In this document: piece by piece, positions 3,401 to 34,156 of the stretch | Numbering within the stretch: position 1 is the first letter of the stretch | Layout: every line of letters starts with the position of its first letter | Virus record (IMG/VR): IMGVR_UViG_3300047443_000065 | Span: 1-34,240 of that record | Length of the DNA stretch: 34,240 nucleotides | Source of the DNA: a virus | Reading direction: 5' to 3' (one strand) | Notes under the pieces: model-generated | Database searches by the model: none | What the model was told of the DNA's origin: nothing | The model's input: the letters and a program-made list of their open reading frames with translations, nothing else | Program-made: the position numbers and the translations under genes

Positions 3401-4251
3401 AAAATGCAGTGCGCGCCGTCCATCTTGACGCCTGTGCCCTGCAGCTTTTTGTCGTCGTACAGGCGCTGCAGGCCAAGAAATTGGCCGTGGATATTGAACA
3501 AAGGAACGCCAGTGAAAACACCGTGACAGTCACGCATGCGTTTCATTTTGAAGCGTGACGCGATCGCGCCGATCTGCTTTTTCTGCAGATAAGGGGCGCT
3601 GCCGTCCTCAGCTCCGAGGACTTCGACGAAGCCGCGAGCTATGAAAGTGTCGCCGCCCTTTTTCTTGCCTTCGTATTCGAATTCGCCGCGCTCGTCGGTC
3701 AGCCAGGCGTGCTCGTAGGCCGAAAATTCGCCTTGGGTACGCGCCTCGCGAGCCCGCTCGATGGCCTCCTCGGCTTCTTGACGGGCGGCCCGCTCGAGGC
3801 GTTTGGCTTCCTGCTTCGCCAACCGTTCGCGATCGCGTTCGCTGGATTCAACGCCACGCTCGTTTTTGTACAGGTCGAGCAGGGCCTCTAAGCCAGACCA
3901 GGTCGAGGCGCCGGTAACGTTGTTACTGAATGTCAGAAAGGGGTATTCGAGCTTGGCCATGGCTGGCCGGGTATCGGTGCCGGGTTTTGCGGCCAGTTCC
4001 TTGAGCTCGCCCCATACCATCAGCTTGCCGGTGTAGCGGGCATCTGTGGCGACAATTTTCGCCTTTGAGTAGGTTTTGAGTCGCTTGCCATTAAGGCGGA
4101 CTTGATCGCTGACCGACGACCATTTGACCGATGCGTCAGCCGCTGCAGCAGAGATATCAGCTTCGAAATGGTCAATAAGGCTGTACGGGTCAGCGTTGAA
4201 ACGCTCAGCGTAGAAGGCCCCTAGACCGGTGCTCTTTTGTACGTTTGTCAT
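406..4251 (-). CDS. Plasmid replication primase-helicase, CyRepA1-like
   Basis: This 1281-residue protein is the probable replication initiator. The N-terminal half has a Toprim/DnaG-like primase region: VEGFATGAS (~297-305), NAADND (~345-350) and DWNDYH (~399-404). A charged helical stretch (~134-172) precedes it. The second half is a superfamily 2-type helicase: Walker A APMGSGKT (~557-564), Walker B CIDEAS (~642-647), a later SPAISSGVSM motif and an arginine-finger motif QMLRRDRTAR. This order matches the CyRepA1 plasmid replication family and resembles herpesvirus origin-binding helicases. The ATG at 4251 follows AAAGGGACAAA, a modest ribosome site embedded in a cluster of repeated ACAAAGGT-type motifs that probably control it. 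An antisense-directed small RNA candidate lies upstream. No separate DnaA-like initiator is seen. Function is confident at family level; origin position is unknown. Confidence 0.88.
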   Translation of the reverse strand: MTNVQKSTGLGAFYAERFNADPYSLIDHFEADISAAAADASVKWSSVSDQVRLNGKRLKTYSKAKIVATDARYTGKLMVWGELKELAAKPGTDTRPAMAKLEYPFLTFSNNVTGASTWSGLEALLDLYKNERGVESSERDRERLAKQEAKRLERAARQEAEEAIERAREARTQGEFSAYEHAWLTDERGEFEYEGKKKGGDTFIARGFVEVLGAEDGSAPYLQKKQIGAIASRFKMKRMRDCHGVFTGVPLFNIHGQFLGLQRLYDDKKLQGTGVKMDGAHCIFGDIETAEVRIAVEGFATGASVYLAEIEAGRNVAVVVAFNVDNLVKVLRIYDKFYPGWRFLNAADNDQWKDAGNAGLLAALEIHRDLQHVATVPTFESMSLAEVAEARATGKGPTDWNDYHCRYGLKSTAKALHARDSMFRAEKDWFTYCLQRVSHSGSKTKIEKAAKMAVNAGLLLVPIKYSVDEVVSRVIEQMHPATPDAVRAKARSLARWIARQKVNAAQQLRGFSVSALAKPNVDYMKIEGVRAEHGGIELPAHMADLVESLEGIVIVRAPMGSGKTEKLIAPLMKASTKAAYIAHRISLLDDAAARLNVEHYQQVYARQMPWVSHLACCVNSLTAPKFYNAEERSWFTTLETLCIDEASQVIRHTTTGPVEGRVKVMDALIEAVAAAKRVLLCDADANDGVIEFCELARPGQMITVLDVVGTTDHIRVDHGDDETVWQLAIDQICAGRRVLVANDSAESAKKMAALIEDKVNEGAIAPVRMLLVHADSKADPDVEAFLCNPNEEATKYDVLIYSPAISSGVSMTTPHFESHFGLFSGNTVGPSDAVQMLRRDRTARHYIVGIGHTSGQRETDPETLYRGLLVAENLVCQFQETPDEYRLTRKKTAFDKVWLSAVTSENKARNSFANNLLLMLYGEGYQVQRLAIDAQTADDLTDRSRENRKFAGELVFSKRMDLIDSVETPTEEAFLKLNRQEVRSEAESAQVDRYHIEHQLGVDEIRADDVSFYDDRGIAKVVALELLQADEAQAKAYDMAQRKARVVLTQHRFKAPARALLAEIFETLTLDRQTGEGEFSSLQCRQVLDLIKRDQDTLDLYNALKLGRHVASLTAKACATTVVKSILERLGQVTKKRKTNGQVLFELNMDNWAFVMGYVQRRAAKNTHSLTTHDHETTHQPLLAPEELAAAPSILSASESDTLQVGDVSTVEKYPLEVAERAFAFASLCDLPAGTPVVKLVRELEPGLVQQMANPGADVRTLKWMLGYAANLLQPQARYTV

Positions 4252-4295
4252 TTTGTCCCTTTGGTCAAAAGTACAAAGGTGAAAAAGTACAAACG
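4235..4295. promoter_or_regulatory. Motif cluster A over the rep translation start
   Basis: TTTTGTAC (4235-4242), GTACAAAGGT (4271-4280) and GTACAAACG (4287-4295) flank the rep start codon; the last two are 16 bp apart, so they lie in phase with an 8-bp unit. AAAGGTGAAAAAGT (4275-4288) recurs exactly at 8870-8883. The same 8-mer family occurs before lysis, before the terminase operon and in the parA promoter. Probable operator or iteron cluster; the bound protein is unknown. Confidence 0.55.
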
Positions 4296-4296
4296 A

Positions 4297-4324
4297 TTGA
4301 CGTCCGTTTACACGGGTCTAAACT
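4297..4324 (+). promoter_or_regulatory. Candidate sigma70 promoter for a small RNA
   Basis: TTGACG (4297-4302), a 16-bp spacer and TAAACT (4319-4324) make a good -35/-10 pair pointing away from rep. There is no plus-strand gene downstream before the terminator at 4427-4456. The -35 box directly abuts motif cluster A, so both could respond to the same protein. Confidence 0.45.
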
Positions 4325-4327
4325 GAG

Positions 4328-4466
4328 CACTGAACCGGAAAAGTTCGAGTGTCACGTCGTGTTACCTGCCCGCTAAAACAGATAACCGATTGCTCAGTAA
4401 ACACCGCAAGGTGTGCGTCTATCGCGAAGGCCGGGGGTGCTAAAGCCCCCGGCCTTTGTCCTTTCT
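4328..4466 (+). ncRNA. Candidate small RNA upstream of rep
   Basis: A start near 4331 and an end near 4460 would give about 130 nt. Visible structure: CACTGAAC paired with GTTC-G-AGTG (4328-4351, one bulged G); ACACC-GCAA-GGTGT (4401-4414), a hairpin with a GNRA tetraloop; and an 11-bp terminator stem (4427-4456) followed by TTTGTCCTTT. No open frame of note is present. Its position beside rep suggests a copy-number or immunity RNA, as in many plasmids and P1/P4-type phages, but I cannot assign it to a known family. Confidence 0.4.
4427..4466 (+). terminator. Strong hairpin terminator in the rep-repressor gap
   Basis: AAGGCCGGGGG (4427-4437) pairs perfectly with CCCCCGGCCTT (4446-4456) around an 8-nt loop; a T-rich tail TTTGTCCTTTCT follows on the plus strand. 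It would end the candidate small RNA and could also stop minus-strand readthrough from the repressor gene. Confidence 0.65.
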
Positions 4467-4483
4467 GAACCTTTGAAAAAAAA

Positions 4484-4510
4484 TAGCTCGTTAGCGGGTA
4501 GCCCCGCTAC
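4484..4510 (-). terminator. Possible terminator of the repressor gene
   Basis: TAGCGGG (4492-4498) pairs with CCCGCTA (4503-4509) around loop TAGC. On the minus strand a run of eight T (complement of A at 4486-4493) follows closely. It lies about 45 bp beyond the repressor stop. Confidence 0.45.
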
Positions 4511-4523
4511 TTTACGTCGTCCT

Positions 4524-4535
4524 CTCTATATTTAG
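4524..4535. promoter_or_regulatory. Possible third repressor site
   Basis: CTCTATATTTAG differs at two positions from the 12-bp repeats at 5275-5286 and 5306-5317 in the repressor control region. It lies just beyond the 3' end of the repressor gene. It may be chance in an AT-rich patch. Confidence 0.25.
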
Positions 4536-4553
4536 AAGACTGACGCGCTCTTT

Positions 4554-5219
4554 TTATAGAACCCCTCCTTTGTCGATCGCCGCGCATAGCCCGACGACGA
4601 CGCCTATTACCTCGAATGTATCACCCACCTGTTGCATGGGAAACTGTGGATTCAGGGCGCGCAGGTAGTACGCCGAGCCGTCCAACGTCAATTTCTTGAA
4701 TACAGGTGAAGCCGGGTCGCCAAGGTGCCCGACTACAAAGTCATTCGCCCCGCCCTTTCGGCCAGGGTCCACAAAGATGGTATAGCCCGGCGTAAAGCTG
4801 ATGCCGCTCGGTGCTTGCATCGATTCATCACGCACGGTCATAGCAAAGATTTTGCCTGGTGGCGTCTCTGGTGGCATCACCCATACCGTACCGGCCGGAA
4901 GCCGTCTAGGATCAGGGTTTCGAGCCCATTCAGTTGCAATATTCCACGGAATAACAGGCACGCGCTGAGCGTGTTCGCTGGGCGCGCTGAATCCGACAGG
5001 GTCGGCCGCTTCTCTCAGCAAAACATCGATCGTCGTTCCGAGCCCTTTTGCGAGTGCGTCGGCGACGTAAACGCTAGGCGCTACGTCCTTCGTTTCTATG
5101 GTCGCCAGGTGCCCGGTCGACATCTCGATATGCGAGGCGTCGATCAGGCGTTGTAGCGACCAATTAAGGGCTTGCCGCCGCATCCGTATTGCGGTGCCGA
5201 TTGTGTAGTCGCGTTGCAT
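4554..5219 (-). CDS. S24/LexA-type phage repressor (CI-like)
   Basis: This 221-residue protein should hold the lysogenic state. An N-terminal helix-turn-helix region (~6-66) is followed by a LexA/S24 peptidase fold starting at RVPVIPW (~86-92), the nucleophile Ser133 in DESMQ and the general-base Lys at 175/176 in VFKKL. The ATG at 5219 is preceded by AGGAGAGGGAACC; an in-frame extension to 5330 lacks such a site and would run across the promoter. The linker before VPVI shows no Ala-Gly or Cys-Gly pair, the usual self-cleavage site, so RecA-induced cleavage is uncertain. The gene is divergent from the early operon, with which it shares a control region. Confidence 0.88.
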   Translation of the reverse strand: MQRDYTIGTAIRMRRQALNWSLQRLIDASHIEMSTGHLATIETKDVAPSVYVADALAKGLGTTIDVLLREAADPVGFSAPSEHAQRVPVIPWNIATEWARNPDPRRLPAGTVWVMPPETPPGKIFAMTVRDESMQAPSGISFTPGYTIFVDPGRKGGANDFVVGHLGDPASPVFKKLTLDGSAYYLRALNPQFPMQQVGDTFEVIGVVVGLCAAIDKGGVL

Positions 5220-5274
5220 GGTTCCCTCTCCTTTTCCCTTAATTATTGTCCCTTCTAGATGCGCAGCGGCACCA

Positions 5275-5317
5275 CTCGTTATATAGGAATTTAGTTGCAT
5301 TTTTGCTCGATATATAG
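5275..5317. promoter_or_regulatory. Paired 12-bp repeats, probable repressor operators
   Basis: CTCGTTATATAG (5275-5286) and CTCGATATATAG (5306-5317) differ at one base and start 31 bp apart, close to three helical turns. They sit between the divergent repressor and early operon starts, the second over the early -10 box. Likely CI operators. Confidence 0.5.
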
Positions 5318-5318
5318 A
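5290..5318 (+). promoter_or_regulatory. Early operon promoter candidate
   Basis: TTTAGT (5290-5295), 17-bp spacer, TATAGA (5313-5318). The -10 box overlaps one of the paired repeats, so repressor binding would block it. The first downstream gene starts at 5366. Confidence 0.45.
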
Positions 5319-5365
5319 GAATGTAGGCATAGCGACATGCGACCAACATTTCAGGGAATAGTGCT

Positions 5366-5968
5366 ATGACTACGCGGACGGAAAGGGATGTGATTGTCGA
5401 TCAGACTAGCCGATGGTTCGCCCATTCGGATTGGTCGATTGAGCGTTTCGCCAGCGAGCGCCTCGCAGTCGCTCTCTCTGCTGCAGGACTGATCGAGACG
5501 CTCGAGGAGCCTGCAGACGTCGAGACGTATCAGAAAACCCGTAAAGCCTGGTCGCAGCGCGTTTCCCGAATTTTCCACGCTACGCAACCTTTCCCGCTCG
5601 AATGGAAATGGGCCTGGCTTTCTTGTCTACCTGAGGACTATCAGCGCGCCGCTCGTTCTGAGCTCCTGGCTATGGCTGGTTGCTTTGACGTGCGTATCCC
5701 CGAGCTTATCGGCCTGGTGGGTGTTCCCGCGGCTAAGGCGCAGCTCGGGCAAGTGACTCAGGCAATCGGTGAGTTCTTGGCTGCCAGCGTCCCGGCGCAT
5801 GATGGCGTGTACGACCATACCGACGACCCTGCTGACGTGGATCGGATGCTTATCGAAGGCACCGAGGCCATTTCTGCAATGTTTAATGAGCTGGTGGCAC
5901 TCGCTACCGGCACCGGCCGCCCGCTGCCGCTGATGATGCTGACCAACCTGAAAGGCGAGCCGCTATGA
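5366..5968 (+). CDS. First gene of the early operon, unknown
   Basis: A 200-residue soluble, mostly helical protein that I cannot place firmly. Notable is the tryptophan-rich centre (LEWKWAWLSCLPEDY, ~78-92) and an acidic region (~149-162). It is the first gene read from the early promoter opposite the repressor, the position that in lambdoid phages holds Cro, CII or YdaT-like regulators, so a regulatory role is a reasonable guess only. ATG at 5366 follows AGGGA. It overlaps the next gene by ATGA. Confidence 0.75.
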   Translation: MTTRTERDVIVDQTSRWFAHSDWSIERFASERLAVALSAAGLIETLEEPADVETYQKTRKAWSQRVSRIFHATQPFPLEWKWAWLSCLPEDYQRAARSELLAMAGCFDVRIPELIGLVGVPAAKAQLGQVTQAIGEFLAASVPAHDGVYDHTDDPADVDRMLIEGTEAISAMFNELVALATGTGRPLPLMMLTNLKGEPL

Positions 5969-6432
5969 GCGCCGCCGCCCTTCGCCTGGTCAGCTCGATA
6001 GCCGAGTCTGACGTCATTCCGACCGATAAAGAGGTGCTGGCCGAGCGTTTCACCGCTGCACCTGGTGAAACAACGGTCGACAAGGTCAGGCGTCAGAACC
6101 GGGAGCGTCAGCGTAATAAGCGTTTGCGCGAGGCTCAGGCCAAGCTGAAAGCCGAAGCGTTCCACCTGCCTGCAATGACCCTCTACGGCGGCACCGTGCA
6201 GGCCCTGATCGACGTCTGCCAGGCTGGCGGATTCGAGGAGCCGGCCGAGGCGCTGACCCTGCTCGCGCATGGTTCGTCGACCCTGTCCAAAAAAGACCCT
6301 GAGGCCTTCGCTGCATTGTTCGCGCCGGTCCTCGCTGCTCTGGCGATCGCTGGGGCGGATCTGGCAAAGCGTGACAGTCACGCTTTCGCGCAGTTGATTG
6401 CGCCGCCGTCACGCAAAGGGGCGGACGAATGA
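5965..6432 (+). CDS. Early protein of unknown function
   Basis: A 155-residue protein with a basic segment (VRRQNRERQRNKRLREAQ, ~40-57) followed by LPAMTLYGGTVQALIDVC, which reads like a ribbon-helix-helix beginning (strand then helix). DNA or RNA binding is therefore possible but unproven. Start and stop both overlap the neighbours by ATGA, implying coupled translation in the early operon. Confidence 0.72.
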   Translation: MSAAALRLVSSIAESDVIPTDKEVLAERFTAAPGETTVDKVRRQNRERQRNKRLREAQAKLKAEAFHLPAMTLYGGTVQALIDVCQAGGFEEPAEALTLLAHGSSTLSKKDPEAFAALFAPVLAALAIAGADLAKRDSHAFAQLIAPPSRKGADE

Positions 6433-6674
6433 AGTCGGTTCGCTTGTTCCGTGTTGCGGGTGGTCAGTCTGTCCTGGTGCTCGAGCTGCCTCGCCGCCGT
6501 GGGCTGTCAGAGGCTCGCGTAGTGGTCAGGGCTGCGTCGCGTAGCCAGGTGCATAACCTCCATTTCAACGAGTCGGCCGCCTGCGCTGACTTTGTGCAGT
6601 CGTTCGATCAGCGGAACGCCGGCTACGCCGTGGCCAGTCTGCTCAGTCAGAAAGGTGGTGCCCGTGTTCAATGA
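6429..6674 (+). CDS. Small early protein of unknown function
   Basis: An 81-residue basic protein with several short beta-like stretches (VLVLELPRRR, ARVVVRAA). I see no recognisable motif. It begins in an ATGA overlap with the preceding gene, and its 3' end overlaps the GTG start of the TraR-like gene, so it is part of the early operon. Confidence 0.62.
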   Translation: MKSVRLFRVAGGQSVLVLELPRRRGLSEARVVVRAASRSQVHNLHFNESAACADFVQSFDQRNAGYAVASLLSQKGGARVQ

Positions 6675-6879
6675 CGTATCCAGCGGCCTCGAGCTGCGCC
6701 AAGACGACGCCGTCGCTCGGGCTTTGATGGCTGAGGAGTGTCTGCAGGCTGGTTTGGTTCTGCAGCGCCTTTGCCTGGCCTGCGGCTACCCGATCGACGC
6801 CGGCCGGCTGACCAGGCTGCCGCGTGCGACCCGCTGCTCGCTCTGCGTTGACTACATCACTCTGGCGCGGAGACGTTGA
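6664..6879 (+). CDS. TraR/DksA-type C4 zinc-finger protein
   Basis: A 71-residue protein with the TraR layout: an N-terminal acidic tip (Asp14-Asp15-Ala16) on a helix, then a C4 zinc finger with Cys37, Cys40 (CLACG), Cys58 and Cys61 (CSLC). TraR proteins from F plasmid and phages enter the secondary channel of RNA polymerase and mimic DksA with ppGpp. The GTG at 6664 has GAAAGGTGG upstream; an in-frame extension to 6592 would overlap the previous gene deeply. Phage TraR proteins may redirect host transcription early in infection. Confidence 0.82.
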   Translation: MFNDVSSGLELRQDDAVARALMAEECLQAGLVLQRLCLACGYPIDAGRLTRLPRATRCSLCVDYITLARRR

Positions 6880-6881
6880 GC

Positions 6882-7724
6882 ATGACGGCCCGCCCTAATT
6901 TCTCGCTTGAGATCCGCCACACGCTACCGCCTATGGAGTCCGTCGAAAGCTGGGCTCTGCAGCACCTCGAGATTCTCCCGGTAGCCCCTGCGCGAGTACA
7001 GATTCGCCGTGGTCGATCAGGGTCTGCGCCGATCGCGCAGGACTTGGTCTGGCTGCGCGAATGGCTACTGTTCGCTTACCTGGCGCCGACTGATTACCGC
7101 GAGACGGATCGCCCGGCCGAGCCTGACGGTGTCGGTGTGATCGAGACGGCTCGCCTGCGCGACGCGTTTCCGCGCCATCGCGCCAACGATCTGGCCGAGT
7201 GCCCGCTCGAGGGTGACGACGAAGCAAAGCGGCTGCCATTCGACTACGTGGCCAGCCTGGCCAGGGATACCACGCGAGTGACCTGCAGCGAGACGCGAAA
7301 GAAGAAAAAAAGCGCGATCCCGCTCGGGCCTACGGCGTTTGAAGACGCGCACCTGGTGCGAACTGTTGCCACGCTCGAAACCGAGCAAAGCCGCTGGATT
7401 CGTTACGCCTACGCCGATTCGCTGGTGTGGGACGACGAGGCGGGCTGCGTGGTGACGCTGTGGGCTCGTGTGGCGCCCCAGCTCGGAAAGATGCAGGGAA
7501 AGACCCTGCAGCGCGCCAAGGGCCTCGCCCACTTGGCTGTGCAGCATCACAAGCATTTGAAGAACGCCGGGAAATGCCGTTACGACGGCCCGCACCTGGC
7601 GCTGCTCCTGGGCGTCAGCGACGTGAACTATCGCCAGCACTGGCGCGCCCGTTGGGACGCTATGCAAAGCGTGCTGGACGAGCTCGACACGGGGGCGCTC
7701 AAGGCGCTCTGGAAGAAAATTTAA
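6882..7724 (+). CDS. Putative late-gene regulator, antiterminator-like
   Basis: A 280-residue protein. The C-terminal ~45 residues (HLALLLGV, then NYRQHW, RARWDAM) look like the helical end of Q/DUF1133-type phage antiterminators, where a short HTH-like segment is followed by a Trp-rich helix. The middle has a lysine cluster (RKKKKS). I use the ATG at 6882, which follows GGAGA by 8 bases; a TTG at 6876 is too close. It is a large early-operon gene upstream of tandem terminators and the lysis genes, which is where an antiterminator would be expected. Function is inferred from position and weak similarity. Confidence 0.5.
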   Translation: MTARPNFSLEIRHTLPPMESVESWALQHLEILPVAPARVQIRRGRSGSAPIAQDLVWLREWLLFAYLAPTDYRETDRPAEPDGVGVIETARLRDAFPRHRANDLAECPLEGDDEAKRLPFDYVASLARDTTRVTCSETRKKKKSAIPLGPTAFEDAHLVRTVATLETEQSRWIRYAYADSLVWDDEAGCVVTLWARVAPQLGKMQGKTLQRAKGLAHLAVQHHKHLKNAGKCRYDGPHLALLLGVSDVNYRQHWRARWDAMQSVLDELDTGALKALWKKI

Positions 7725-7743
7725 TCAAAAGAAGGGGTGTCTC

Positions 7744-8172
7744 ATGCTTGGATTCTGGAAGCGCCGCCGCCTGGCTCGAGAGGCTGCGGCCGAGGCTAGT
7801 CGTAAAAAACTGCTCGAAAGAATGGCTGTTGCTGATCGTCACGAGCGAATTGCCGCTCGTCAGTCGGGCCTGGCTCCATCGAGCAGCTCGCCCTCGGCTG
7901 GCTTGGGTCTGCACGATCCGTTGCACTCTCTCAGCCCGTTGAACCCGCTTTCGCCTTTGGGCGTTTACAGCCAGGTCGACGCCTACGCCGCGCCGCGCTC
8001 TGAGCCGGAGCCGGTGCGTAGCCATTGCTCGCCGAGCGTTTCGGATGACTCCTGGAGTCGCTCGAGCTCGAGCGGCTCAGACTACAGTTGCAGCGGCTCG
8101 AGCTATGACTCGGGCAGTTCCAGCGGCTACGACTCGAGCAGCAGCTCGAGCAGCTCTGACTCGAGCTACTGA
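7744..8172 (+). CDS. Protein with basic N-terminus and Ser-rich tail
   Basis: 142 residues in two parts. Residues 1-40 are strongly basic and helical (WKRRRLAREA, SRKKLLERM). From ~46 the chain is low-complexity, and the last ~45 residues are almost only Ser, Asp, Gly and Tyr, ending SSSSDSSY. The DNA there repeats agctcgagc units, so replication slippage may have lengthened it. Start follows GAAGGGGTG. No enzyme motif. Similar Ser-rich ends occur in uncharacterised phage proteins; a membrane-surface or nucleic-acid-contacting role is speculation. Confidence 0.65.
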   Translation: MLGFWKRRRLAREAAAEASRKKLLERMAVADRHERIAARQSGLAPSSSSPSAGLGLHDPLHSLSPLNPLSPLGVYSQVDAYAAPRSEPEPVRSHCSPSVSDDSWSRSSSSGSDYSCSGSSYDSGSSSGYDSSSSSSSSDSSY

Positions 8173-8174
8173 CG

Positions 8175-8492
8175 ATGACCGCCTCTGCTTGCTTGCACTG
8201 TGGCGCCGCACCTGAGCGCCGTCACCAGACTGGCTCTGGTCTCTTTTTGTGGGTCTGCACTGTCTGCAGTAACCGGGGCGAGGTGAGTCCGAAAGAGACT
8301 CGGGCGCTGGCCAGTTGGAACCTGGTTAACGACCCTGAGCTGCCGGTGCATACTTGCAAGGGGAAAGGGGTCGCTCGGTTCTTTATCCGGTCCGCTTGCT
8401 GGGGCTCTCGTTGCCCTTGCTGCGACTTTGTCGACGAAGGTTACGCCACGATCGAGGGCGCTCGAGCCGGTTGGGCTCGCGCTGTGAGGTGA
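8175..8492 (+). CDS. Tandem Lar-like zinc-ribbon protein
   Basis: 105 residues with two treble-clef-like units. The first resembles the Lar restriction-alleviation family: Cys6/Cys9 (CLHCG), Cys28/Cys31 (VCTVC), then ALASWNL, the family's terminal Trp-Asn. The second has Cys61, Cys75, Cys80 and Cys83 and ends ARAGWARA. Lar of Rac prophage modulates type I restriction-modification; many relatives are uncharacterised. The two-unit arrangement is less usual than the single-unit form. It lies 2 bases after the Ser-rich gene stop. Confidence 0.65.
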   Translation: MTASACLHCGAAPERRHQTGSGLFLWVCTVCSNRGEVSPKETRALASWNLVNDPELPVHTCKGKGVARFFIRSACWGSRCPCCDFVDEGYATIEGARAGWARAVR

Positions 8493-8494
8493 TA

Positions 8495-8866
8495 ATGAAA
8501 AAGCTGCTGATTACCGGCTGTAACGATCGCAATATGTGGTACTCGGGTTTAGTGGGTAAGCAAGTGCCGTTTCTGAAAGAGGAGTCGGACGTTTATAGAA
8601 GTCTCGAACCGGCCGGGTTTGTGAACTTTGTGCGCAAGGCCGATGCTCAGATCGTCGAGGATGGCCTGCAGCCGGTCGGTCTGATGAATTGGGCGGAAGG
8701 CCAAAAGGCCATTGGTACAAAAGCCCCGGCGAGTTCGCTTGGTGGCGTGTCGGTGCATGCCGAGATGAATTTCCTCGGCTTTCCGGTGGTTGTAGATCCG
8801 ACTATGCCGCCCGGTCAAATTCGGCTGGCTGTGCGCCAAATGGACAAAGGTACAAAGGGCCAATAG
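8495..8866 (+). CDS. Conserved-looking phage protein, unknown
   Basis: 123 residues starting MKKLLITGCNDRNMWYSGLVG. The ATG at 8495 has GAGGTGATA upstream, far better than an in-frame start at 8354 that would overlap the zinc-ribbon gene. The pattern of a short beta strand, MWY, and FLKEESDVYRSLEPAGFVN is reminiscent of small hypothetical phage proteins, but I cannot assign a role. It is the last early gene; its 3' end contains one copy of the tandem ACAAAGGT motif. Confidence 0.68.
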   Translation: MKKLLITGCNDRNMWYSGLVGKQVPFLKEESDVYRSLEPAGFVNFVRKADAQIVEDGLQPVGLMNWAEGQKAIGTKAPASSLGGVSVHAEMNFLGFPVVVDPTMPPGQIRLAVRQMDKGTKGQ

Positions 8867-8883
8867 TGAAAAGGTGAAAAAGT
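8842..8883. promoter_or_regulatory. Motif cluster B at the early-lysis junction
   Basis: ACAAAGGT ACAAAGGG in tandem (8844-8859) and AAAGGTGAAAAAGT (8870-8883), identical to 4275-4288 near rep. It lies directly upstream of a candidate promoter at 8887-8916. Part of it is coding, but the exact 14-mer is intergenic. Confidence 0.5.
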
Positions 8884-8886
8884 CCC

Positions 8887-8916
8887 TTGCAAAAGTAACG
8901 CAAAAAAGGGTACTTT
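8887..8916 (+). promoter_or_regulatory. Candidate promoter before the lysis genes
   Basis: TTGCAA (8887-8892), 18-bp spacer, TACTTT (8911-8916). Transcripts would begin near 8923 and meet a terminator within about 20-40 bases, so lysis genes would need antitermination or another promoter. Confidence 0.35.
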
Positions 8917-8939
8917 ATCCATTCTGCGATACATACGAC

Positions 8940-8970
8940 AAAAGCCCGCCATCTGAGCGGGCTTTTGCGT
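8940..8970 (+). terminator. Intrinsic terminator after the early operon
   Basis: AAAAGCCCGC (8940-8949) and GCGGGCTTTT (8957-8966) form a 10-bp stem with loop CATCTGA and a T-run. Confidence 0.8.
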
Positions 8971-9008
8971 TTCTGACGTTCGCAAATCATGAGGGGTGCA
9001 ACCCCTTG

Positions 9009-9024
9009 GCAGGCCTAGGCCTGC
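9009..9024. repeat. 16-bp perfect palindrome between two terminators
   Basis: GCAGGCCTAGGCCTGC is a perfect palindrome with no loop. A GGGGT/ACCCC pair lies just upstream (8993-9005). It could be a protein-binding site; as RNA it would be part of a third hairpin between two terminators. Confidence 0.5.
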
Positions 9025-10948: not shown

Positions 10949-11110
10949 GGGTCCTCCCCCGCCCCCTCCCCCTTCACGGGTGACTAACTCGCGGCCTTCG
11001 CGCGTGTCGCTTCCCGCGTGTCGGGTCCGTACTTCCGAACCTGAGGCCTCCCGCCCTGCATCGCCAGCCTGACCGCTCGGCCAGGTGCGACGGGGCCTCA
11101 ACCTAATTTC
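10949..11110. other. Candidate cos/packaging region
   Basis: About 260 bases without a gene separate the gp49-like gene and the terminase small subunit. A strongly C-rich tract (10953-10972) is followed by CGCGTGTCG twice (11001-11009 and 11015-11023). In lambda-type phages with Nu1/GpA terminase, cos lies just upstream of the small subunit and is GC-rich with repeated binding sites. This fits by place and composition; the cleavage point is not identifiable. Confidence 0.4.
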
Positions 11111-11125
11111 CAGAAAGCCCAAAGG

Positions 11126-11160
11126 ACAAAGGTCGGAAAGGACCTTTGTACCTTTGTACT
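11126..11160. promoter_or_regulatory. Motif cluster C before the terminase operon
   Basis: ACAAAGGT (11126-11133) faces tandem ACCTTTGT ACCTTTGT (11142-11157); ACAAAGGTC and GACCTTTGT form 9-bp inverted arms with a 6-nt spacer. ACCTTTGTACTTTT (11150-11163) occurs in the same orientation relative to the start of rep. No clear promoter boxes found. Confidence 0.55.
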
Positions 11161-11192
11161 TTTAGACTTTTTCTCTTTTGGTCCTTTCTCCC

Positions 11193-11765
11193 ATGGGCAA
11201 GATCATCAGCAAAAAGGACTTGGCCGACCTGATCGGAAAGTCTGATCGCTGGATCTCGAAGCTGATCGACGAAGGCCTGCCAACTGTCGGCGGCGGTGGT
11301 CGAGGGGTCGCCGTCCAGATCGACAGCCAGGCCGCTATCGAGTGGCTGATCCTGCGCGAAGTGCGCCGGGAAATGGGCGACGAAGGCGAGGACGAGGAGG
11401 GGGTTAGCTCTGCGTCAACCGAGGATCGACTGCTAAAACGCGCCAGGCGCGAAAAGCTGCAGCTCGAAATTGACCAGGTGCGCGGCCGACTGATTCCGAA
11501 CGAGACGTTCGTCAACCTCAACACCAGCATCGCGGCAGTGTATGCAACGCAACTCGATGCGCTGCCAAGCCGGTGTGCTGCCGATCTGGCGCTTATCGAT
11601 GACCCTGCCCTTATCCGAGCTCGACTATTTGAAGAAACGAGGCGTATCCGTGGGGATACAGCCGACCGTCTCGAACATAAATCACGTGAGCTCGCTGCGG
11701 ACGTTGGTCGCCTCGATTCATTACGTCTCGAATCTGGTGCAGGCGCCGCCGCCGAGGAGATCTGA
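11193..11765 (+). CDS. Terminase small subunit, Nu1-like
   Basis: 190 residues. The N-terminus holds a winged helix-turn-helix pattern (SKKDLADLIGKSDRWISKLI), used by lambda Nu1-type subunits to bind cos; a charged helical middle and C-terminal large-subunit contact region follow. I use the ATG at 11193; an in-frame TTG at 11178 is possible. Neither has a Shine-Dalgarno sequence, which is unusual here and may reflect translational control. It precedes and overlaps the large subunit. Confidence 0.82.
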   Translation: MGKIISKKDLADLIGKSDRWISKLIDEGLPTVGGGGRGVAVQIDSQAAIEWLILREVRREMGDEGEDEEGVSSASTEDRLLKRARREKLQLEIDQVRGRLIPNETFVNLNTSIAAVYATQLDALPSRCAADLALIDDPALIRARLFEETRRIRGDTADRLEHKSRELAADVGRLDSLRLESGAGAAAEEI

Positions 11766-29759: not shown

Positions 29760-29761
29760 CG

Positions 29762-30139
29762 ATGGCGCAGCAAATGGCGCTCGGCGAGTTCGTTTTCGGG
29801 CTCTCGAGCGGCTTCCCTTACGAGTCGCTCGACCGTAAAACGTCGGGCGGGTGGGTCAGCCTGGACATAATCAGCAGTAAGCCACGGTCGCACCAGACCG
29901 GGCAGGGGCTCGAGGAGCTCAGGCTCAACGGTAAGGCGCAGTTTGCGGCCGGCATGGCCAAGCTCGACGAGCTGCGCGCCATGGCCGACGCTCGCGTGCC
30001 TTATGTCCTGGTCGACGGTGTCGGCCGGGTGTGGGGTCGTTGGCGAATCGACGGCGTAAACGAGGGGCAGAAACGCGTGCTCGATGACGGTACGACGACG
30101 CTCCTGGAGTGGTCGCTCGATCTTTCGGAGTTCTTCTAA
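29762..30139 (+). CDS. U: Tail protein gpU
   Basis: 125 residues, P2 gpU type: ALGEFVFGLSSGFPYESL and RPRSHQTGQGLEELRL-like signature (as SSKPRSHQTGQGLEE). Acts at the tail end, with gpX and gpD. Stop overlaps the gpX start by TAATG. Confidence 0.88.
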   Translation: MAQQMALGEFVFGLSSGFPYESLDRKTSGGWVSLDIISSKPRSHQTGQGLEELRLNGKAQFAAGMAKLDELRAMADARVPYVLVDGVGRVWGRWRIDGVNEGQKRVLDDGTTTLLEWSLDLSEFF

Positions 30140-30351
30140 TGCGCAGAGTGCGAACGATCGCGGGCGACACGGCAAACCTGTTGCTTTATCGCGAGCTCGG
30201 CCGATCTGACGACGCGGCCGAGGAGGCGTTTTGGCTGGTCAATCCGGGCCTGGCTGAGTTTGGCCCGGCGTTACCTGGTGATATGTGGGTGATTTTGCCC
30301 GAGCTGGCCGCGAAAGCGGCTGCAGATAGGCCGATTTCGGCGTGGGACTAA
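30139..30351 (+). CDS. X: Tail protein gpX
   Basis: 70 residues, P2 gpX family: early ARG-like start, then NLLLYRELGR and EAFWLVNPGLAEFGP. Contains a LysM-like short fold and joins the baseplate hub. I use the ATG at 30139, not the in-frame 30109. Confidence 0.85.
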   Translation: MRRVRTIAGDTANLLLYRELGRSDDAAEEAFWLVNPGLAEFGPALPGDMWVILPELAAKAAADRPISAWD

Positions 30352-30363
30352 AGGGGTAGGGTT

Positions 30364-31374
30364 ATGGCGCTTGGATTTACGCCGGCAGTCGAGATAACGG
30401 GCGCGAATGCGGCGCTGATTAACGCTCGCCTGGTGGATTGGGAGCACGTCGACGCCTCGGGCGTGAAGTCGGACACGTTGAACCTGACGGTTCGAGTCGA
30501 CGACCTGGAAGGCTTGCCCAGCTTCGACGGGGTGATCGGGTTAAAGGTCGGCTACCTCGAGTCGGGGCTCGTCGATAAAGGCGAGTTCAATATCACCAGG
30601 TGCCGGCCTCAGTTGTTCCCGCCGCTGCTGAAAATCGTCGCCACTGCAGTTCCTTTCAAGGTGGCTGACGAGACGGCATTCAAAGAGCGAAAGTCGGCCA
30701 GCTACGGGCCGACCACACTTGGCGCGATCTTTCGGGAGCTGACCGCGCGCCACGGGTTTTCCCCTCGGATCTCGGCCGAGCTTGATGCAAAGGTGATCGA
30801 CCATATCGACCAGTCGAATGAAACCGACATGGGGTTTTTGACGCGGATCTCGCGCAAGTACGACGCCGTCACGAAGCCGGTTAACGAGCTCTACGTCATG
30901 GCTCTGAAAGGTCAGGTCAAATCGCTGTCGGGTAAGACGTTGCCGGTCGTGCCCTTGTCGGTAACGAAAGGGAATTCGCCGAACGACCGATCGTTTATCA
31001 ATGCCACGCTCGACGAAGAAAGCCGCGTCAAGTTCAAGGGCTGCAAAACGGTCTGGTGGGACGGCTCGACGGGCAAAGAGTGCGTGGTCGAGACGGGGGA
31101 AAAGCCGTTCAAGAAGGTGACGCAGCGTTACCAGAATGAGGCTGACGCGAAGGCTGCAGGCGAGGGATCGCTGCGCAAGCTCAAGCGCGAGGAAATGAAA
31201 CTGCAGATCGATTGCCCCGGTAATCCTGATCTTGCGGCCGAGGGCCTGATCGAGCTCGACGACACCTGGCCGTCATTCATGCGCGGTCAGTGGTCAATTG
31301 ACCAGGTGACGGCAAACGGCAGCCGGCAGCAGAGTTACCGCTGCTCGCTGACTGCGACAATCCCTGCGGAATAA
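30364..31374 (+). CDS. D: Tail protein gpD
   Basis: 336 residues, P2 gpD family of baseplate hub proteins (T4 gp27-like): NLTVRVDDLEGLPSF, VGYLESGLVDKGEF, and the family's WSIDQVTANG end. Forms the trimeric cap between tube and spike. Last gene of the late operon. RBS AAAGGGGTAGGG. Confidence 0.9.
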   Translation: MALGFTPAVEITGANAALINARLVDWEHVDASGVKSDTLNLTVRVDDLEGLPSFDGVIGLKVGYLESGLVDKGEFNITRCRPQLFPPLLKIVATAVPFKVADETAFKERKSASYGPTTLGAIFRELTARHGFSPRISAELDAKVIDHIDQSNETDMGFLTRISRKYDAVTKPVNELYVMALKGQVKSLSGKTLPVVPLSVTKGNSPNDRSFINATLDEESRVKFKGCKTVWWDGSTGKECVVETGEKPFKKVTQRYQNEADAKAAGEGSLRKLKREEMKLQIDCPGNPDLAAEGLIELDDTWPSFMRGQWSIDQVTANGSRQQSYRCSLTATIPAE

Positions 31375-31410
31375 AAAAGCCCCCACTGCCTAACGGCGGT
31401 GGGGGCTTTT
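31375..31410. terminator. Bidirectional terminator between converging operons
   Basis: AAAAGCCCCCACTGCC (31375-31390) pairs, with one T-G wobble, with GGCGGTGGGGGCTTTT (31395-31410) around TAAC. A- and T-runs on both sides make it work for gpD (+) and for the converging accessory gene (-). Confidence 0.85.
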
Positions 31411-31423
31411 CTCGTTTCTGGCG

Positions 31424-31780
31424 TTACTGCTCGAGCAGGGCGCCGGGCATGGTTGGCGGCGACTGGTAGTCGACCATCACGGCCGGCAGGTTCTGCAGGT
31501 CCTGGACGTTGGCCAGCTTGCCGACGACCTCGATCGCGTTACCGTTGGCGGCGATCCATGTCGCGTCTCGGTCGAGCCAGACGCTGGCCGGCGCGCCGTT
31601 TTTGTACCGGCAGACGCCCCAGCTTTTGCCGTCCTGCTTGAGGATCTTGCAATTAACCGCCAGCCCAACCCGCTCGCTGACGCGCTCGAGCGCGTGGTCG
31701 TCCTTTTTGACCAGGTCGTAAGCCAGGATCGCTACCAGGGCGACGACGACGGCGCCAATGATGATGGGCTTTGCTTTCAT
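31424..31780 (-). CDS. Small membrane-anchored protein
   Basis: 118 residues, starting MKAKPIIIGAVVVALVAILA, a single N-terminal membrane anchor, then a mostly periplasmic domain with two Cys (VNCKIL, WGVCRYK) that could form a disulfide. Family unknown. It is separated from the next upstream gene by a terminator, so it likely has its own promoter. I chose the ATG at 31780; an upstream frame to 31915 would pass through the terminator. Confidence 0.68.
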   Translation of the reverse strand: MKAKPIIIGAVVVALVAILAYDLVKKDDHALERVSERVGLAVNCKILKQDGKSWGVCRYKNGAPASVWLDRDATWIAANGNAIEVVGKLANVQDLQNLPAVMVDYQSPPTMPGALLEQ

Positions 31781-31823
31781 GCTGCGCGCTTCTCCGTTCG
31801 GTTGAGGCGCGCAGGGTAACAAA

Positions 31824-31846
31824 AAGCCCGCCGAGTGGGCGGGCTT
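31824..31846 (-). terminator. Terminator of the accessory operon
   Basis: AAGCCCGCC (31824-31832) and GGCGGGCTT (31838-31846), loop GAGTG; TTTTT follows on the minus strand. Confidence 0.78.
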
Positions 31847-31866
31847 GTGGGGTGGGTTACATGGGG

Positions 31867-32163
31867 CTACCCGTAAACGACATCGGGGCGGGCGGCGTAT
31901 TCGCTGAGCGACCACTCGGCCGGGGTTATCTTGATCCAGATTTCGCGCTGAGAGGCGCTGAAATCATGCTCGCTGAGCTCGGAAATCTCCTCGAGTAGCA
32001 GTTTGCGAACGCCGTCAAAGTGTTTATGCGTCTCGCGGCCGTATACCCCTTTTACCTCGTAAACTGTGCGCGTTTCCTCTTTGTTGCGGCGCTCGATCTC
32101 GGCGTCGATGCGTGCTCGTTGCCGCTTGAGATCGTCGATTGTTTCGGTGGCGAGGTCTGTCAT
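31867..32163 (-). CDS. Small coiled-coil protein, unknown
   Basis: 98 residues: an N-terminal helix (IDDLKRQRARIDAEIERRNKE) like a short coiled coil, then a mixed domain ending PDVVYG. No family recognised. Start ATG at 32163 overlaps the preceding gene's stop (ATGA); an in-frame extension to 32229 is less likely. Last gene of the coupled accessory operon. Confidence 0.68.
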   Translation of the reverse strand: MTDLATETIDDLKRQRARIDAEIERRNKEETRTVYEVKGVYGRETHKHFDGVRKLLLEEISELSEHDFSASQREIWIKITPAEWSLSEYAARPDVVYG

Positions 32164-32393
32164 TGGTGGTTGTCCTTGCTGGTGTATTGGTGGCGCAATG
32201 TCCAGGCGGTGTACAGGATCGCAAGCCACGGCAGCGCGCTAAAGGCTGGCCACGCGGCAAGCCAGAAGATCAGCGGCGGCGGGCCGTCGTGGCGCATGAG
32301 CATTGCGGCAGCGAGCAGGAGCGGCCAGACGTAGCCGAGCGTTAGGCCGGGATGGCTGGCCAGTGAGCGGCGGAAAAGCTGCCAGTTGTTCAT
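32160..32393 (-). CDS. Small integral membrane protein
   Basis: 77 residues with two hydrophobic helices (GYVWPLLLAAAML and LIFWLAAWPAFSALPWLAILY) and short ends. The ATG at 32393 follows GGTGGTAACA, which is supplied by the end of the repeat gene. Unknown role; a superinfection-exclusion role is a guess from the type. Confidence 0.65.
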   Translation of the reverse strand: MNNWQLFRRSLASHPGLTLGYVWPLLLAAAMLMRHDGPPPLIFWLAAWPAFSALPWLAILYTAWTLRHQYTSKDNHQ

Positions 32394-32395
32394 TG

Positions 32396-32752
32396 TTACC
32401 ACCTCTTTTTGACGTCGCGATCGGGGCCGCCGAACTCTGCGTCGGTGCGGCCGTCGTTGTCGAGATCCCGATCGGGGCCGCCGAATGTTGCGTCGGTGCG
32501 GCCGTCGCCGTCGAGATCCCGATCGCCGCCTCGGAATTGCCCGTCGGTGCGCCCGTCGTTGTCGAGATCGCGGTCAGGGCCGCCGAACTTCGCGTCGGTG
32601 CGGCCGTCGTTGTCGAGATCCCGATCGGGGCCGCCGCATGTCGCGTCAGTTCGCCCGTCGTCGTCGACGTCGCAGTTTCGGGCGGCTGCAGGCTGGAAAG
32701 AGCCAGCGATCGCTAGAGCGAGCAGGAGCCCGCCGATTTTGAGGGTGGTCAT
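32396..32752 (-). CDS. Exported protein with five DxDxDG calcium-like repeats
   Basis: 118 residues. Residues 1-24 are a signal peptide ending PAAA. Residues 26-110 are five tandem 17-residue units, each with D-x-D-x-D-G-R-T-D and mostly followed by GGP; the fifth is followed by a partial DRD. The nine-residue acidic loop matches calcium-binding loops of EF-hand/dockerin/thrombospondin-type-3 kind. Two Cys (27, 39) lie in the first unit and could pair. Repeats are close to identical at 51 bp, indicating recent expansion. ATGA overlap with the upstream gene. Likely periplasmic or secreted. Function unknown; its place in a prophage-side operon suggests lysogenic conversion. Confidence 0.75.
   Translation of the reverse strand: MTTLKIGGLLLALAIAGSFQPAAARNCDVDDDGRTDATCGGPDRDLDNDGRTDAKFGGPDRDLDNDGRTDGQFRGGDRDLDGDGRTDATFGGPDRDLDNDGRTDAEFGGPDRDVKKRW
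32423..32677. repeat. Five 51-bp tandem repeats
   Basis: Encodes residues 26-110 of the exported repeat protein. Units differ by few bases (e.g. Thr/Lys/Gln/Glu codons before Phe). Confidence 0.8.
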
Positions 32753-32901
32753 ACTTGCTTGTCCTGGTTGGTGGCCTTGTCGTCCGCGCGCTGGGTGTAA
32801 ATGCGGTAGATGAACACGCCTACGACGTGCAGCGCGATGGCGATGGCCACGACGCCGTTAAAGAGAATTTGAAGCCCGGTAGGGTCGTCGCTGCGCTTCA
32901 T
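32749..32901 (-). CDS. 50-residue membrane protein
   Basis: Single hydrophobic helix (ILFNGVVAIAIALHVVGVFI) followed by a basic/acidic tail. The ATG at 32901 has GGAGG seven bases upstream. Its start overlaps the previous stop by TAATG, and its stop overlaps the repeat protein start by ATGA. Role unknown. Confidence 0.65.
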   Translation of the reverse strand: MKRSDDPTGLQILFNGVVAIAIALHVVGVFIYRIYTQRADDKATNQDKQV

Positions 32902-33053
32902 TAGGCGGCCTCCCCGATCAGTTTCAGGACGGCGTGCCATGCAATCAGGCAGCATTCTTGCTCGAGGTAGGCGCGCACTTTGGCGCGGTTGGCTGGATCT
33001 GCAGCGTCGCGCAGTGAAAGGCTGCGGACCGTGTTATATTCGCGTCTAGACAT
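32901..33053 (-). CDS. 50-residue protein, first of accessory operon
   Basis: Begins MSRREYNTVRSLSLRD, contains a Cys pair (EQECCLIAW) and ends GEAA. The start at 33053 has GAGGGG six bases upstream, and TAATG couples it to the membrane gene. Both support a real gene despite small size. Family unknown. Confidence 0.6.
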   Translation of the reverse strand: MSRREYNTVRSLSLRDAADPANRAKVRAYLEQECCLIAWHAVLKLIGEAA

Positions 33054-33068
33054 GGTTTACCCCTCAGG

Positions 33069-33098
33069 TTTATCTGTCTCGCCTGGTGGCGGGTGCAA
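33069..33098 (-). promoter_or_regulatory. Weak promoter candidate for the accessory operon
   Basis: On the minus strand TTGCAC, 18-bp spacer, GATAAA. Otherwise transcription would come through parA-parG. Confidence 0.28.
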
Positions 33099-33110
33099 CC
33101 GCTACCAGGC
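33081..33110. repeat. Hairpin after the ParB-like gene
   Basis: GCCTGGT (33081-33087) and ACCAGGC (33104-33110) plus an inner CGGG-like stem. No T-tract on the minus strand, so readthrough into the accessory operon is possible. Confidence 0.4.
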
Positions 33111-33116
33111 TTCTTT

Positions 33117-33428
33117 TCACTTCAATGATTCCAGGCGCCGTTTCAGCTCGGCCTGATCTTCGACGTTGTAATGCCCCTTCCCTTGCTCGTACTTTTTGAA
33201 CAGATCGTCGAGCGCTTCAATGATCAGATATTTAACCGGGACGTTGTCGGCCGACATGCTTTTAATGTCGTTGGTGCCTCTGTGGTACTTGACCGGCACG
33301 ATCGCCTTGAGCTGTTTCTCTTCGGTCGAATCGCTTACTACTGCTCGGCGCGCTTTCTCGACGTGTGGCTCGATTTGGGCGGCGGCGGCGCGGCTAGGGC
33401 GCTCGGTGCTGAGTTTTGTACCGGTCAT
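33117..33428 (-). CDS. ParG/ParB-like ribbon-helix-helix protein
   Basis: 103 residues: a disordered, Arg/Glu/Ser-rich N-terminus (~1-38), then LKAIVPVKYHR (DNA-contacting strand) and two helices to LFKKYE, a ribbon-helix-helix fold. Partners of type Ib ParA proteins (ParG, Omega) have this design and bind both centromere and the par promoter. The start overlaps parA by ATGA. The likely bound site is the palindrome in the par promoter. Confidence 0.72.
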   Translation of the reverse strand: MTGTKLSTERPSRAAAAQIEPHVEKARRAVVSDSTEEKQLKAIVPVKYHRGTNDIKSMSADNVPVKYLIIEALDDLFKKYEQGKGHYNVEDQAELKRRLESLK

Positions 33429-34072
33429 TTATCAAACTCCAGGAGCTCGGCCGTCAGGGCCTCGATCTCGAGACGTGCATCGTCGCCAGGCGCCAGGTCC
33501 ATTACGCTGTTCCCTTGTGCAATGCCTTTCCCGTAGGCGACGCGCTGGTGCGTTTGAGTTTCGGTTAGCGGCAGCTCGTAGTTGAGCAGCGCCTGCTGTG
33601 CGTCGCGCTCGAGAATGGTCCCGGCGATGGCTCGAGCGATCATCAGTACGGCCTTCGGTGAGCCGCCTGTGACCTCCTGGCGGTCCTTCACTAGCGTGAC
33701 CATGTCGGCGGTCGCCCATATGTCGTATTGGCTCGGCTGCACAGGAATGATGACCAGGTGCGAAGCCTTGACCGCGTCCGACGTCAGGGTGCTGATCTGC
33801 GGTATCCCGTCAATGATCACGTAGTCGTAACCGCTCGAGATTCGCGGCAGGTCGCGCTTTAGCGTTTCCCGCATGATCACGCAGGGGATCAGTGTCGCGT
33901 CGTCAGCACGGGACGTTGCCCAGTCAGTCGCCGAGCCTTGGCGGCCGTCGAGGTCGACCAGGAGCACGCTTTTGCCGTGCTTATCGGCCAGGCAGCAGGC
34001 GACGTTCGTCGCGGTCGTCGTCTTTGTTGTGCCGCCCTTTTGGTTCTGTATGGTCCAGATTCTTGCAGCCAT
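33425..34072 (-). CDS. parA: ParA-type partition ATPase
   Basis: 215 residues, of the short type Ib class (no N-terminal HTH). Deviant Walker A: QKGGTTKTTT with Lys12 and Lys17; Walker A' LLVDLDGRQGS (Asp40); Walker B YVIIDG. Such ATPases move plasmids apart on the nucleoid. ATG at 34072 has GAGG upstream; the frame extends to 34147 but that would cover the promoter. ATGA overlap with the RHH gene makes this a typical par operon. Confidence 0.9.
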   Translation of the reverse strand: MAARIWTIQNQKGGTTKTTTATNVACCLADKHGKSVLLVDLDGRQGSATDWATSRADDATLIPCVIMRETLKRDLPRISSGYDYVIIDGIPQISTLTSDAVKASHLVIIPVQPSQYDIWATADMVTLVKDRQEVTGGSPKAVLMIARAIAGTILERDAQQALLNYELPLTETQTHQRVAYGKGIAQGNSVMDLAPGDDARLEIEALTAELLEFDK

Positions 34073-34102
34073 TTTGAAGGCCTCGCGGTTAGGTGAGGTC
34101 TC

Positions 34103-34131
34103 AATATACGTACAAATGTACCTTTGTACAA
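34103..34131 (-). promoter_or_regulatory. parA promoter
   Basis: On the minus strand TTGTAC (34126-34131), 17-bp spacer, TATATT (34103-34108). Strong -10 and spacing; the spacer is filled by the operator-like palindrome. Confidence 0.65.
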
Positions 34132-34156
34132 TAGGCCATAAGGGCAAAGGTACAAA
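34110..34156. promoter_or_regulatory. Motif cluster D / par operator, possible centromere
   Basis: GTACAAATGTACCTTTGTAC (34110-34129) has 7-bp inverted arms with a 6-nt centre, and CAAAGGTACAAA (34145-34156) lies just upstream. Together they cover the -35 box, suggesting autoregulation by the RHH protein and perhaps the parS/centromere. Confidence 0.55.

What the first reader, a model, noticed from the sequence alone, without database searches (positions are those of the whole stretch)
4235..34156. An 8-mer (ACAAAGGT) recurs at four control points of the element
Clusters: A 4235-4295 at the rep start; B 8842-8883 at the early-lysis junction; C 11126-11160 before terminase; D 34110-34156 in the parA promoter. 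B and C are perfect or near-perfect tandems of the 8-mer; C and D also have inverted copies; A and B share the exact 14-mer AAAGGTGAAAAAGT; A and C share ACCTTTGTACTTTT in the same orientation relative to the gene start. This suggests one phage protein (RHH partition protein, or rep) linking plasmid copy control, partition and the switch to late genes. I know of no described system of this form, but I cannot search.
Basis: partly seen in the sequence, partly recalled or inferred. Interest (0 to 1): 0.78.

Follow-up and report, generated by a model that had tools for sequence, protein, structure and literature searches.

The report
Partition-protein sites scattered through telomere phage
A phage that lives in Pseudomonas as a linear plasmid carries the same short 8-base repeat arrays at its replication, plasmid-partition, late-gene and packaging start points, and because those arrays change together from phage to phage, one small DNA-binding partition protein very probably reads all of them, a layout also found in the unrelated N15 system.

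Summary
The shared element is not one 8-mer but a tandem array of 4-bp cores (GTAC-like here) separated by 4-bp A/T-rich spacers, strictly 8-bp phased. A motif-free lag-8 scan picks sites C, B, A and D as the four best places in the window. The window is a telomere phage (linear plasmid prophage) of the VP882/phiHAP-1 kind, nearly identical in places to a Pseudomonas corrugata plasmid. In 29 related genomes, 99 of 107 gene-defined sites carry 8-bp periodicity at p<=0.05; other lags give 0-25. The core changes clade by clade (GTAC, GTTC, GTGC, RCGY), together at all four sites and in parallel with the DNA-contacting beta strand of the small ribbon-helix-helix (RHH) protein encoded after a ParF-like parA. 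PY54, which shares most other early genes but not this par pair, has no arrays. Best explanation: dispersed centromeres and operators of a type Ib (ParF/ParG-like) partition protein, reaching rep, the Q-dependent late promoter and the cos-terminase interval. Binding itself is untested.

The parts
4235..4294 (-). Array A: seven phased cores (GTAC TCAC GTAC GACC GGAC TGAC GTAC, gene sense) running into the rep ribosome-binding site, ATG (4251) and codons 2-6
   Evidence: lag-8 p=0.002 in the window; present in all 28 genomes tested
8842..8889 (+). Array B: six phased cores (GGAC GTAC GGCC GTGA GTGA GTCC) upstream of the presumed Q-dependent late promoter
   Evidence: lag-8 p=0.0008; same position in most relatives
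8691..8730 (+).
   Evidence: score 25.1 (best of 15 shuffles 21.1). Two or more B arrays also in several relatives
8939..8967 (+). Hairpin (CAAAAGCCCGC / GCGGGCTTTTG), terminator-like, just downstream of B
   Evidence: Perfect 11-bp arms; RNA fold z=-5.5 for 8925-8990; hairpin in the same place in relatives. The tool's terminator scan did not flag it
10973..11004 (+). cos-like stretch TTCACGGGTGA..AACTCGCGG..TTCGCGCG
   Evidence: Shared with phiHAP-1 upstream of terminase; cos function inferred
11124..11184 (-). Array C: GGAC GTCG GGAC GTAC GTAC AGAC TCTC GGTC at 8-bp phase, between the cos-like stretch and terminase small subunit
   Evidence: best lag-8 window of the whole contig; p=0.0008
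34110..34157 (-). Array D: GTAC GTAC GTAC GGCC GGGC GTAC at 8-bp phase over the parA promoter; presumed main centromere
   Evidence: covers the -35 and spacer of the predicted promoter
34103..34130 (-). parA promoter: -35 TGTACA, 16 nt, -10 TATATT
   Evidence: 1 found, 0.1 expected; the -10 follows the last array unit in most clades
33425..34072 (-). parA, 215 aa, ParF-like ATPase without N-terminal DNA-binding domain
   Evidence: Best PDB match ParF of TP228, E=2.7e-20 over residues 6-212; start as annotated in the P. corrugata homologue
33117..33428 (-). Small RHH protein, 103 aa, presumed centromere-binding protein; beta strand KQLKAIVP
   Evidence: Pfam Antitox_RHH in 28 of 31 homologues (best 1.9e-5) and RHH_3 in 6, weak in the window's own copy; PHROG 15913, unknown function; beta strand co-varies with array core
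406..4251 (-). rep (RepA, primase/helicase type of telomere phages)
6876..7724 (+). Q-like antiterminator
   Evidence: Pfam Phage_antiter_Q 5.2e-18
11178..11765 (+). Terminase small subunit (Nu1-like); likely true start at the ATG at 11193
   Evidence: Pfam Phage_Nu1 3.8e-8; alignment of starts

Best explanation
The four arrays (plus a weaker fifth) are binding sites for the 103-aa RHH protein encoded just after a ParF-like parA. Dimers of the RHH protein insert their beta ribbon into each 4-bp core and polymerise along the 8-bp phased array. Site D autorepresses parA-RHH by covering the promoter, and serves as a centromere. Sites A, B and C are further centromere units placed so that the same protein also controls rep expression (copy number), the Q-dependent late promoter and the cos-terminase interval. 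The element is therefore a linear plasmid prophage whose partition complex doubles as a regulator of replication and of the switch to late functions. Shown: the arrays, their phase, their conserved positions and the concerted change of their cores. Strongly inferred: one binder for all sites, and that it is the RHH protein. Inferred from anatomy: repression at D and A. Least certain: the sign and strength of the effect at B and C (repression in lysogeny, or stimulation on induction as reported for N15).
For: Motif-free lag-8 scan ranks C, B, A, D first to fourth in the window. Across 29 genomes 99 of 107 gene-defined sites are significant at lag 8, against 0-25 at other lags. A matrix trained on the window alone finds the sites in relatives and nothing above shuffles in N15, PY54 and phiKO2. 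The core changes together at all four sites by clade, and a matrix from D sites predicts A, B and C (RCGY clade 36-40 bits with its own matrix, -11 to -22 with the GTAC matrix). The RHH beta strand changes in parallel: KQLKAIVP and KQLKVLAA with GTAC, KKIPLLAP with GTTC, KRLPVYAR with GTGC, (E/G)R(I/V)YF with RCGY. Other binders fit worse: the Nu1 recognition helix is near constant across the change, and the cI recognition helix varies within one core class. PY54 shares rep, Q, Lar, lysozyme, protelomerase and CII-like but neither RHH nor ParF-like ParA, and lacks arrays; MAR keeps RHH, ParA, cI, CII-like with a different terminase and very distant rep, and has arrays. ParA is ParF-like over its full length. 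Published type Ib RHH proteins bind such arrays: ParG tetramer boxes with AT-rich spacers (PMC7308502), omega 7-bp repeats over par and copy-number promoters (PMC9499535). D overlaps the parA promoter.
Against: No binding data. The RHH assignment rests on weak profile matches; the fold search found nothing significant and hhalign to ParG was not significant. Whole-protein distances of all phage proteins correlate similarly with motif distance, so co-phylogeny is a confounder. One relative (G015) carries a C site of another clade's type together with that clade's terminase. B is weak by lag-8 in the GTAC sub-clade c1b and in phiHAP-1, and C and D are weak in VP882. No consensus promoter was found at B or C in the window.
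Confidence: 0.76

Rival explanations
1. The arrays are RHH-bound centromere sites spread around the genome for partition only. Their closeness to rep, late and terminase genes is where free intergenic space exists, with no regulatory effect except autoregulation at D.
For: No regulatory effect at A, B or C is shown. Several sites per genome would suit partition of a linear plasmid. No consensus promoter was seen at B or C in the window.
Against: A runs into the rep start codon in the window's clade and ends at the ribosome-binding site elsewhere. B precedes promoter-like sequence and a terminator hairpin in several clades. Positions are fixed over large divergence while other intergenic gaps are not used. 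N15 sites in matching places have a reported role in late expression (title; details from memory).
Confidence: 0.14
2. The arrays are iterons or operators of the Rep protein, which autoregulates its own gene and also binds the other sites.
For: A lies at the rep start; some plasmid Rep proteins bind short phased iterons (general knowledge).
Against: N15, PY54 and phiKO2 have homologous Rep but no arrays. Rep would not be expected at parA, late promoter and terminase. D is at the par promoter.
Confidence: 0.04
3. The lysogeny repressor cI, or the CII-like activator, reads the arrays as a phage regulon.
For: Sites sit at control points. cI and CII-like are present throughout the family, and cI distances also correlate with motif distance on a small sample.
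Against: The cI recognition helix differs within the GTTC clade while the core does not, and similar helices go with different cores. No strong array lies in the cI-CII gap where its operators would be expected. PY54 has a CII-like gene and no arrays.
Confidence: 0.04
4. Site C is a cosB-like packaging site bound by the terminase small subunit, unrelated to the other three.
For: C lies between a cos-like stretch and the Nu1-like gene, as cosB does in lambda (general knowledge).
Against: C has the same core as A, B and D in nearly every genome and changes with them, while the Nu1 recognition helix is nearly constant.
Confidence: 0.02

Closest known systems
N15 / phiKO2 Sop system with dispersed centromeres
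   Same: Linear plasmid prophages with homologous RepA and protelomerase. Partition sites scattered at the repA start, after Q and just upstream of the late promoter, outside the par operon. A reported second role in late-gene expression (Ravin, Rech and Lane 2008; title, content from memory).
   Different: The N15 binder is SopB, an HTH ParB, reading single 18-bp inverted repeats. Here it is a small unrelated RHH protein with a ParF-like ParA and tandem 8-bp arrays, one of them in the par promoter and one between cos and terminase.
omega of pSM19035 (RHH ParB; delta/omega partition)
   Same: RHH protein whose tandem short-repeat arrays overlap partition and copy-number promoters; one protein links partition and copy control (PMC9499535).
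   Different: 7-bp WATCACW units against an 8-bp core-plus-spacer unit; a Gram-positive plasmid without phage late genes; no detectable sequence relation tested here.
ParF/ParG of TP228
   Same: ParA is ParF-like over its full length. ParG sites are degenerate tetramers with AT-rich spacers and lie in the centromere and the par operator (PMC7308502).
   Different: The RHH protein has no significant sequence match to ParG. ParG sites are confined to the par locus; here arrays also lie at rep, late and terminase genes.
VP882 and phiHAP-1 (Hapunavirus), VHML/MAR/VP58.5 (Vhmlvirus)
   Same: Same gene order in the early and par regions and homologous RHH and ParA; arrays found here in all.
   Different: Their arrays are not annotated in the records and the RHH gene is listed as hypothetical or phage-related; not mentioned in the open papers searched.

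Membership tests
Type Ib (ParF/ParG, delta/omega) partition system | Small ParA ATPase without N-terminal HTH, ParF-like | tested here: met
   215 aa; ParF (4dzz) matched over residues 6-212, E=2.7e-20
Type Ib (ParF/ParG, delta/omega) partition system | Small RHH DNA-binding protein encoded directly downstream of parA | tested here: inconclusive
   Position met in all relatives. RHH fold supported by Pfam matches in homologues, weak in the window copy; fold search not significant
Type Ib (ParF/ParG, delta/omega) partition system | Tandem short-repeat centromere overlapping the par promoter | tested here: met
   Array D over the parA promoter, 8-bp phase, in all clades
Type Ib (ParF/ParG, delta/omega) partition system | The protein binds the array, represses the operon and stabilises the replicon | not testable with these tools
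   Needs gel shift, reporter and plasmid-loss assays
N15 Sop system | SopB-type (HTH) centromere-binding protein with an 18-bp inverted-repeat site | tested here: not met
   Binder candidate is a 103-aa RHH protein; ParA matches N15 SopA over only 46 aa; sites are 8-bp arrays. Not filed as a member; works like it
N15 Sop system | Partition sites dispersed at rep start and late promoter | tested here: met
   Searches compared with 37, 39, 84-86
Telomere phage (Hapunavirus-like linear plasmid prophage) | RepA of this family and shared gene order | tested here: met
Telomere phage (Hapunavirus-like linear plasmid prophage) | Protelomerase gene between parA and rep | tested here: inconclusive
   Not in the window, which ends just upstream of parA and begins before the end of rep; present in the near-identical P. 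corrugata record and in most relatives

The most novel reading that the evidence does not exclude
A previously undescribed regulon: in VP882/phiHAP-1-type telomere phages a type Ib RHH partition protein, with its specificity re-evolving repeatedly, plays the role that SopB plays in N15 and jointly controls copy number, partition, late transcription and packaging through co-evolving 8-bp arrays. Two unrelated partition proteins would then have converged on, or replaced each other in, the same wiring.
Probability: 0.5. Interest if true: 0.78.

Novelty: new variant of a known kind. Interest (0 to 1): 0.64.

Why it matters
It assigns a probable function to an unannotated phage protein family (PHROG 15913) and gives the likely centromere of VP882-type phages, which are used to study quorum-sensing control of lysis. 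It suggests that linking partition to replication and late genes is a general design of telomere phages, reached with non-homologous proteins. The natural set of co-varying beta strands and 4-bp cores is a ready-made specificity series for testing RHH recognition and phage-plasmid incompatibility.

Tried and rejected
Chance: rejected by shuffles and by the motif-free scan. Generic coding noise: the lone 17321 copy is not in an array. Fold search of the RHH model against PDB gave nothing significant. Profile search of PDB and hhalign against ParG were negative. Whole-protein distance correlations do not discriminate among candidate binders. Promoter scans found no consensus promoter at B or C in the window and only an antisense one near A. 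Original N15 papers are not in the open library. Searches for papers on VP882-family partition sites found none. The metagenome collection was not scanned.
Full report
What the window is. The 34,240-bp record is a virus contig. Its RepA is 51% identical to phiHAP-1, 43% to VP882 and 28% to N15, and its gene order (parA, rep, cI, CII-like, Q, Lar, lysis, terminase, P2-like tail) is that of Hapunavirus telomere phages. A Pseudomonas corrugata plasmid record has 98% identical RHH, 99% rep and 100% cI; that record includes the telomere resolvase, which falls outside this contig.

The observation. ACAAAGGT is 14-fold over expectation and the shared 14-mer has no chance expectation. Written at 8-bp phase, each cluster is a tandem array of a 4-bp core followed by a 4-bp A/T-rich spacer: D is GTAC.aaat GTAC.cttt GTAC.aata GGCC.ataa GGGC.aaag GTAC.aaaa. 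A scan that knows no motif, counting only matches between base i and base i+8 in 40-bp windows, ranks C, B, A and D first to fourth in the whole window; at lags 7 and 9 the top windows are elsewhere. A fifth, weaker array lies at 8691-8730.

Conservation. A weight matrix trained only on the window finds arrays at the parA promoter, the rep start, between Lar and lysozyme, and before terminase in the IMG/VR relatives that hold those regions; in phiHAP-1 and VP882 it finds most of them, the rest being weaker. In 29 genomes, using only gene starts to define the sites, 99 of 107 sites reach lag-8 p<=0.05 and 87 reach 0.01; the other lags tested (4-15) give 0-25. These genomes are related, so the 107 sites are not independent. 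N15, PY54 and phiKO2 give nothing at lag 8 and nothing above shuffles with the matrix.

Concerted change. The core is GTAC in the window's clade, GTTC/GAAC in a second, GTGC in a third and RCGY (ACGT, GCGT) in a fourth, and the change is seen at A, B, C and D of the same genome. Matrices learned from D sites alone score the other sites well within the same broad class, most clearly for the RCGY clade (36-40 bits with its own matrix against -11 to -22 with the GTAC matrix), with no other place in those genomes scoring as high. The closer classes (GTAC, GTTC, GTGC) are not cleanly separated by this test, because making the matrices symmetric blurs them. One exception, G015, has a GTTC-type C site together with a GTTC-clade terminase.

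Which protein. Candidates are RHH, Rep, cI, CII-like, Q and Nu1. The RHH beta strand changes with the core class. The Nu1 recognition helix stays close to GKSxRW(I/V)SKLIxxGLP across the change, and the cI recognition helix varies within one core class. PY54 has Rep, Q, Lar, lysozyme, protelomerase and CII-like homologues but neither this RHH nor a ParF-like ParA, and lacks arrays; MAR keeps RHH, ParA, cI and CII-like with another terminase and a very distant rep, and has arrays. Whole-protein distances alone do not discriminate. I put RHH as the binder at about 0.85.

Mechanism. ParA is ParF-like over its full length. RHH partition proteins bind short phased repeats cooperatively: ParG binds degenerate tetramers with AT-rich spacers (PMC7308502), and omega binds 7-bp repeats that overlap copy-number and partition promoters, with at least four contiguous repeats needed for full activation of its ParA (PMC9499535). 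Here D covers the -35 and spacer of the parA promoter, which implies autorepression. A runs into the rep ribosome-binding site and start codon, which implies control of rep synthesis. B precedes promoter-like sequence (TTGACA in phiHAP-1 and VP882) and a strong hairpin, as expected of a Q-dependent late promoter. C lies between a cos-like stretch and terminase. Regulation at B and C is the least certain part.

Comparison. In N15 and phiKO2 I located the 18-bp Sop sites near the repA start, after Q, about 20 bp upstream of the annotated late promoter -35, and near the lysis end (site sequence from PMC7205306). The layout is similar, with a non-homologous binder. From memory, Ravin, Rech and Lane 2008 reported that N15 Sop facilitates late gene expression; the title was seen in the reference list of PMC11652158, the paper itself is not held. 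The system therefore works like N15 Sop and omega but is a member of neither. It is best called a type Ib-like partition system with dispersed operator-centromeres. No open paper found describes it in the VP882 family.

Verdict.

Noticed in passing
Plasmid records NZ_CP102178, NZ_AP022474, NZ_CP096940, NZ_CP115281 (75-79 kb; L108, L110): 'Circular' Pseudomonas plasmids of about twice phage size with two RHH copies; the two read in detail (L108, L110) carry inverted copies of resolvase and rep, so they look like head-to-head dimers of telomere phages assembled through hairpin ends.
   Followed up: partly
G004 contig (L030-L032), centre about 21657: Palindromic contig with parA arrays on either side of the centre, as expected of reading through a hairpin telomere next to parA.
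   Followed up: partly
G002 contig (L027-L029): 50.9-kb contig with two diverged copies of terminase, capsid, lysis and Q genes; probably a composite of two related phages.
   Followed up: no
window about 4325-4350 and relatives, roughly 60-80 bp upstream of the rep ATG: A CAGTTTAG-like element is conserved upstream of array A in most clades; possible rep promoter or origin element.
   Followed up: no
L025 22689-22736 (VP882), L026 23797-23828 (phiHAP-1), L055 22250-22293 (MAR): Extra array in the region between the late tail genes and parA-RHH, absent from the window's clade.
   Followed up: partly
G015 (L043-L045) upstream of terminase: C site and terminase of the GTTC clade in a GTAC-clade genome: a natural mosaic or an assembly chimera; useful for testing mismatch tolerance.
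   Followed up: partly
window 32396-32752 (-): Small protein with a signal-like N-terminus and tandem DRDLDNDGRTDAxFGGP repeats, reminiscent of calcium-binding repeats; similar protein near the RHH gene in several relatives.
   Followed up: no
PHROG 15913: Family of unknown function that contains this RHH protein and VP882 gp52; probable name: type Ib centromere-binding protein.
   Followed up: yes
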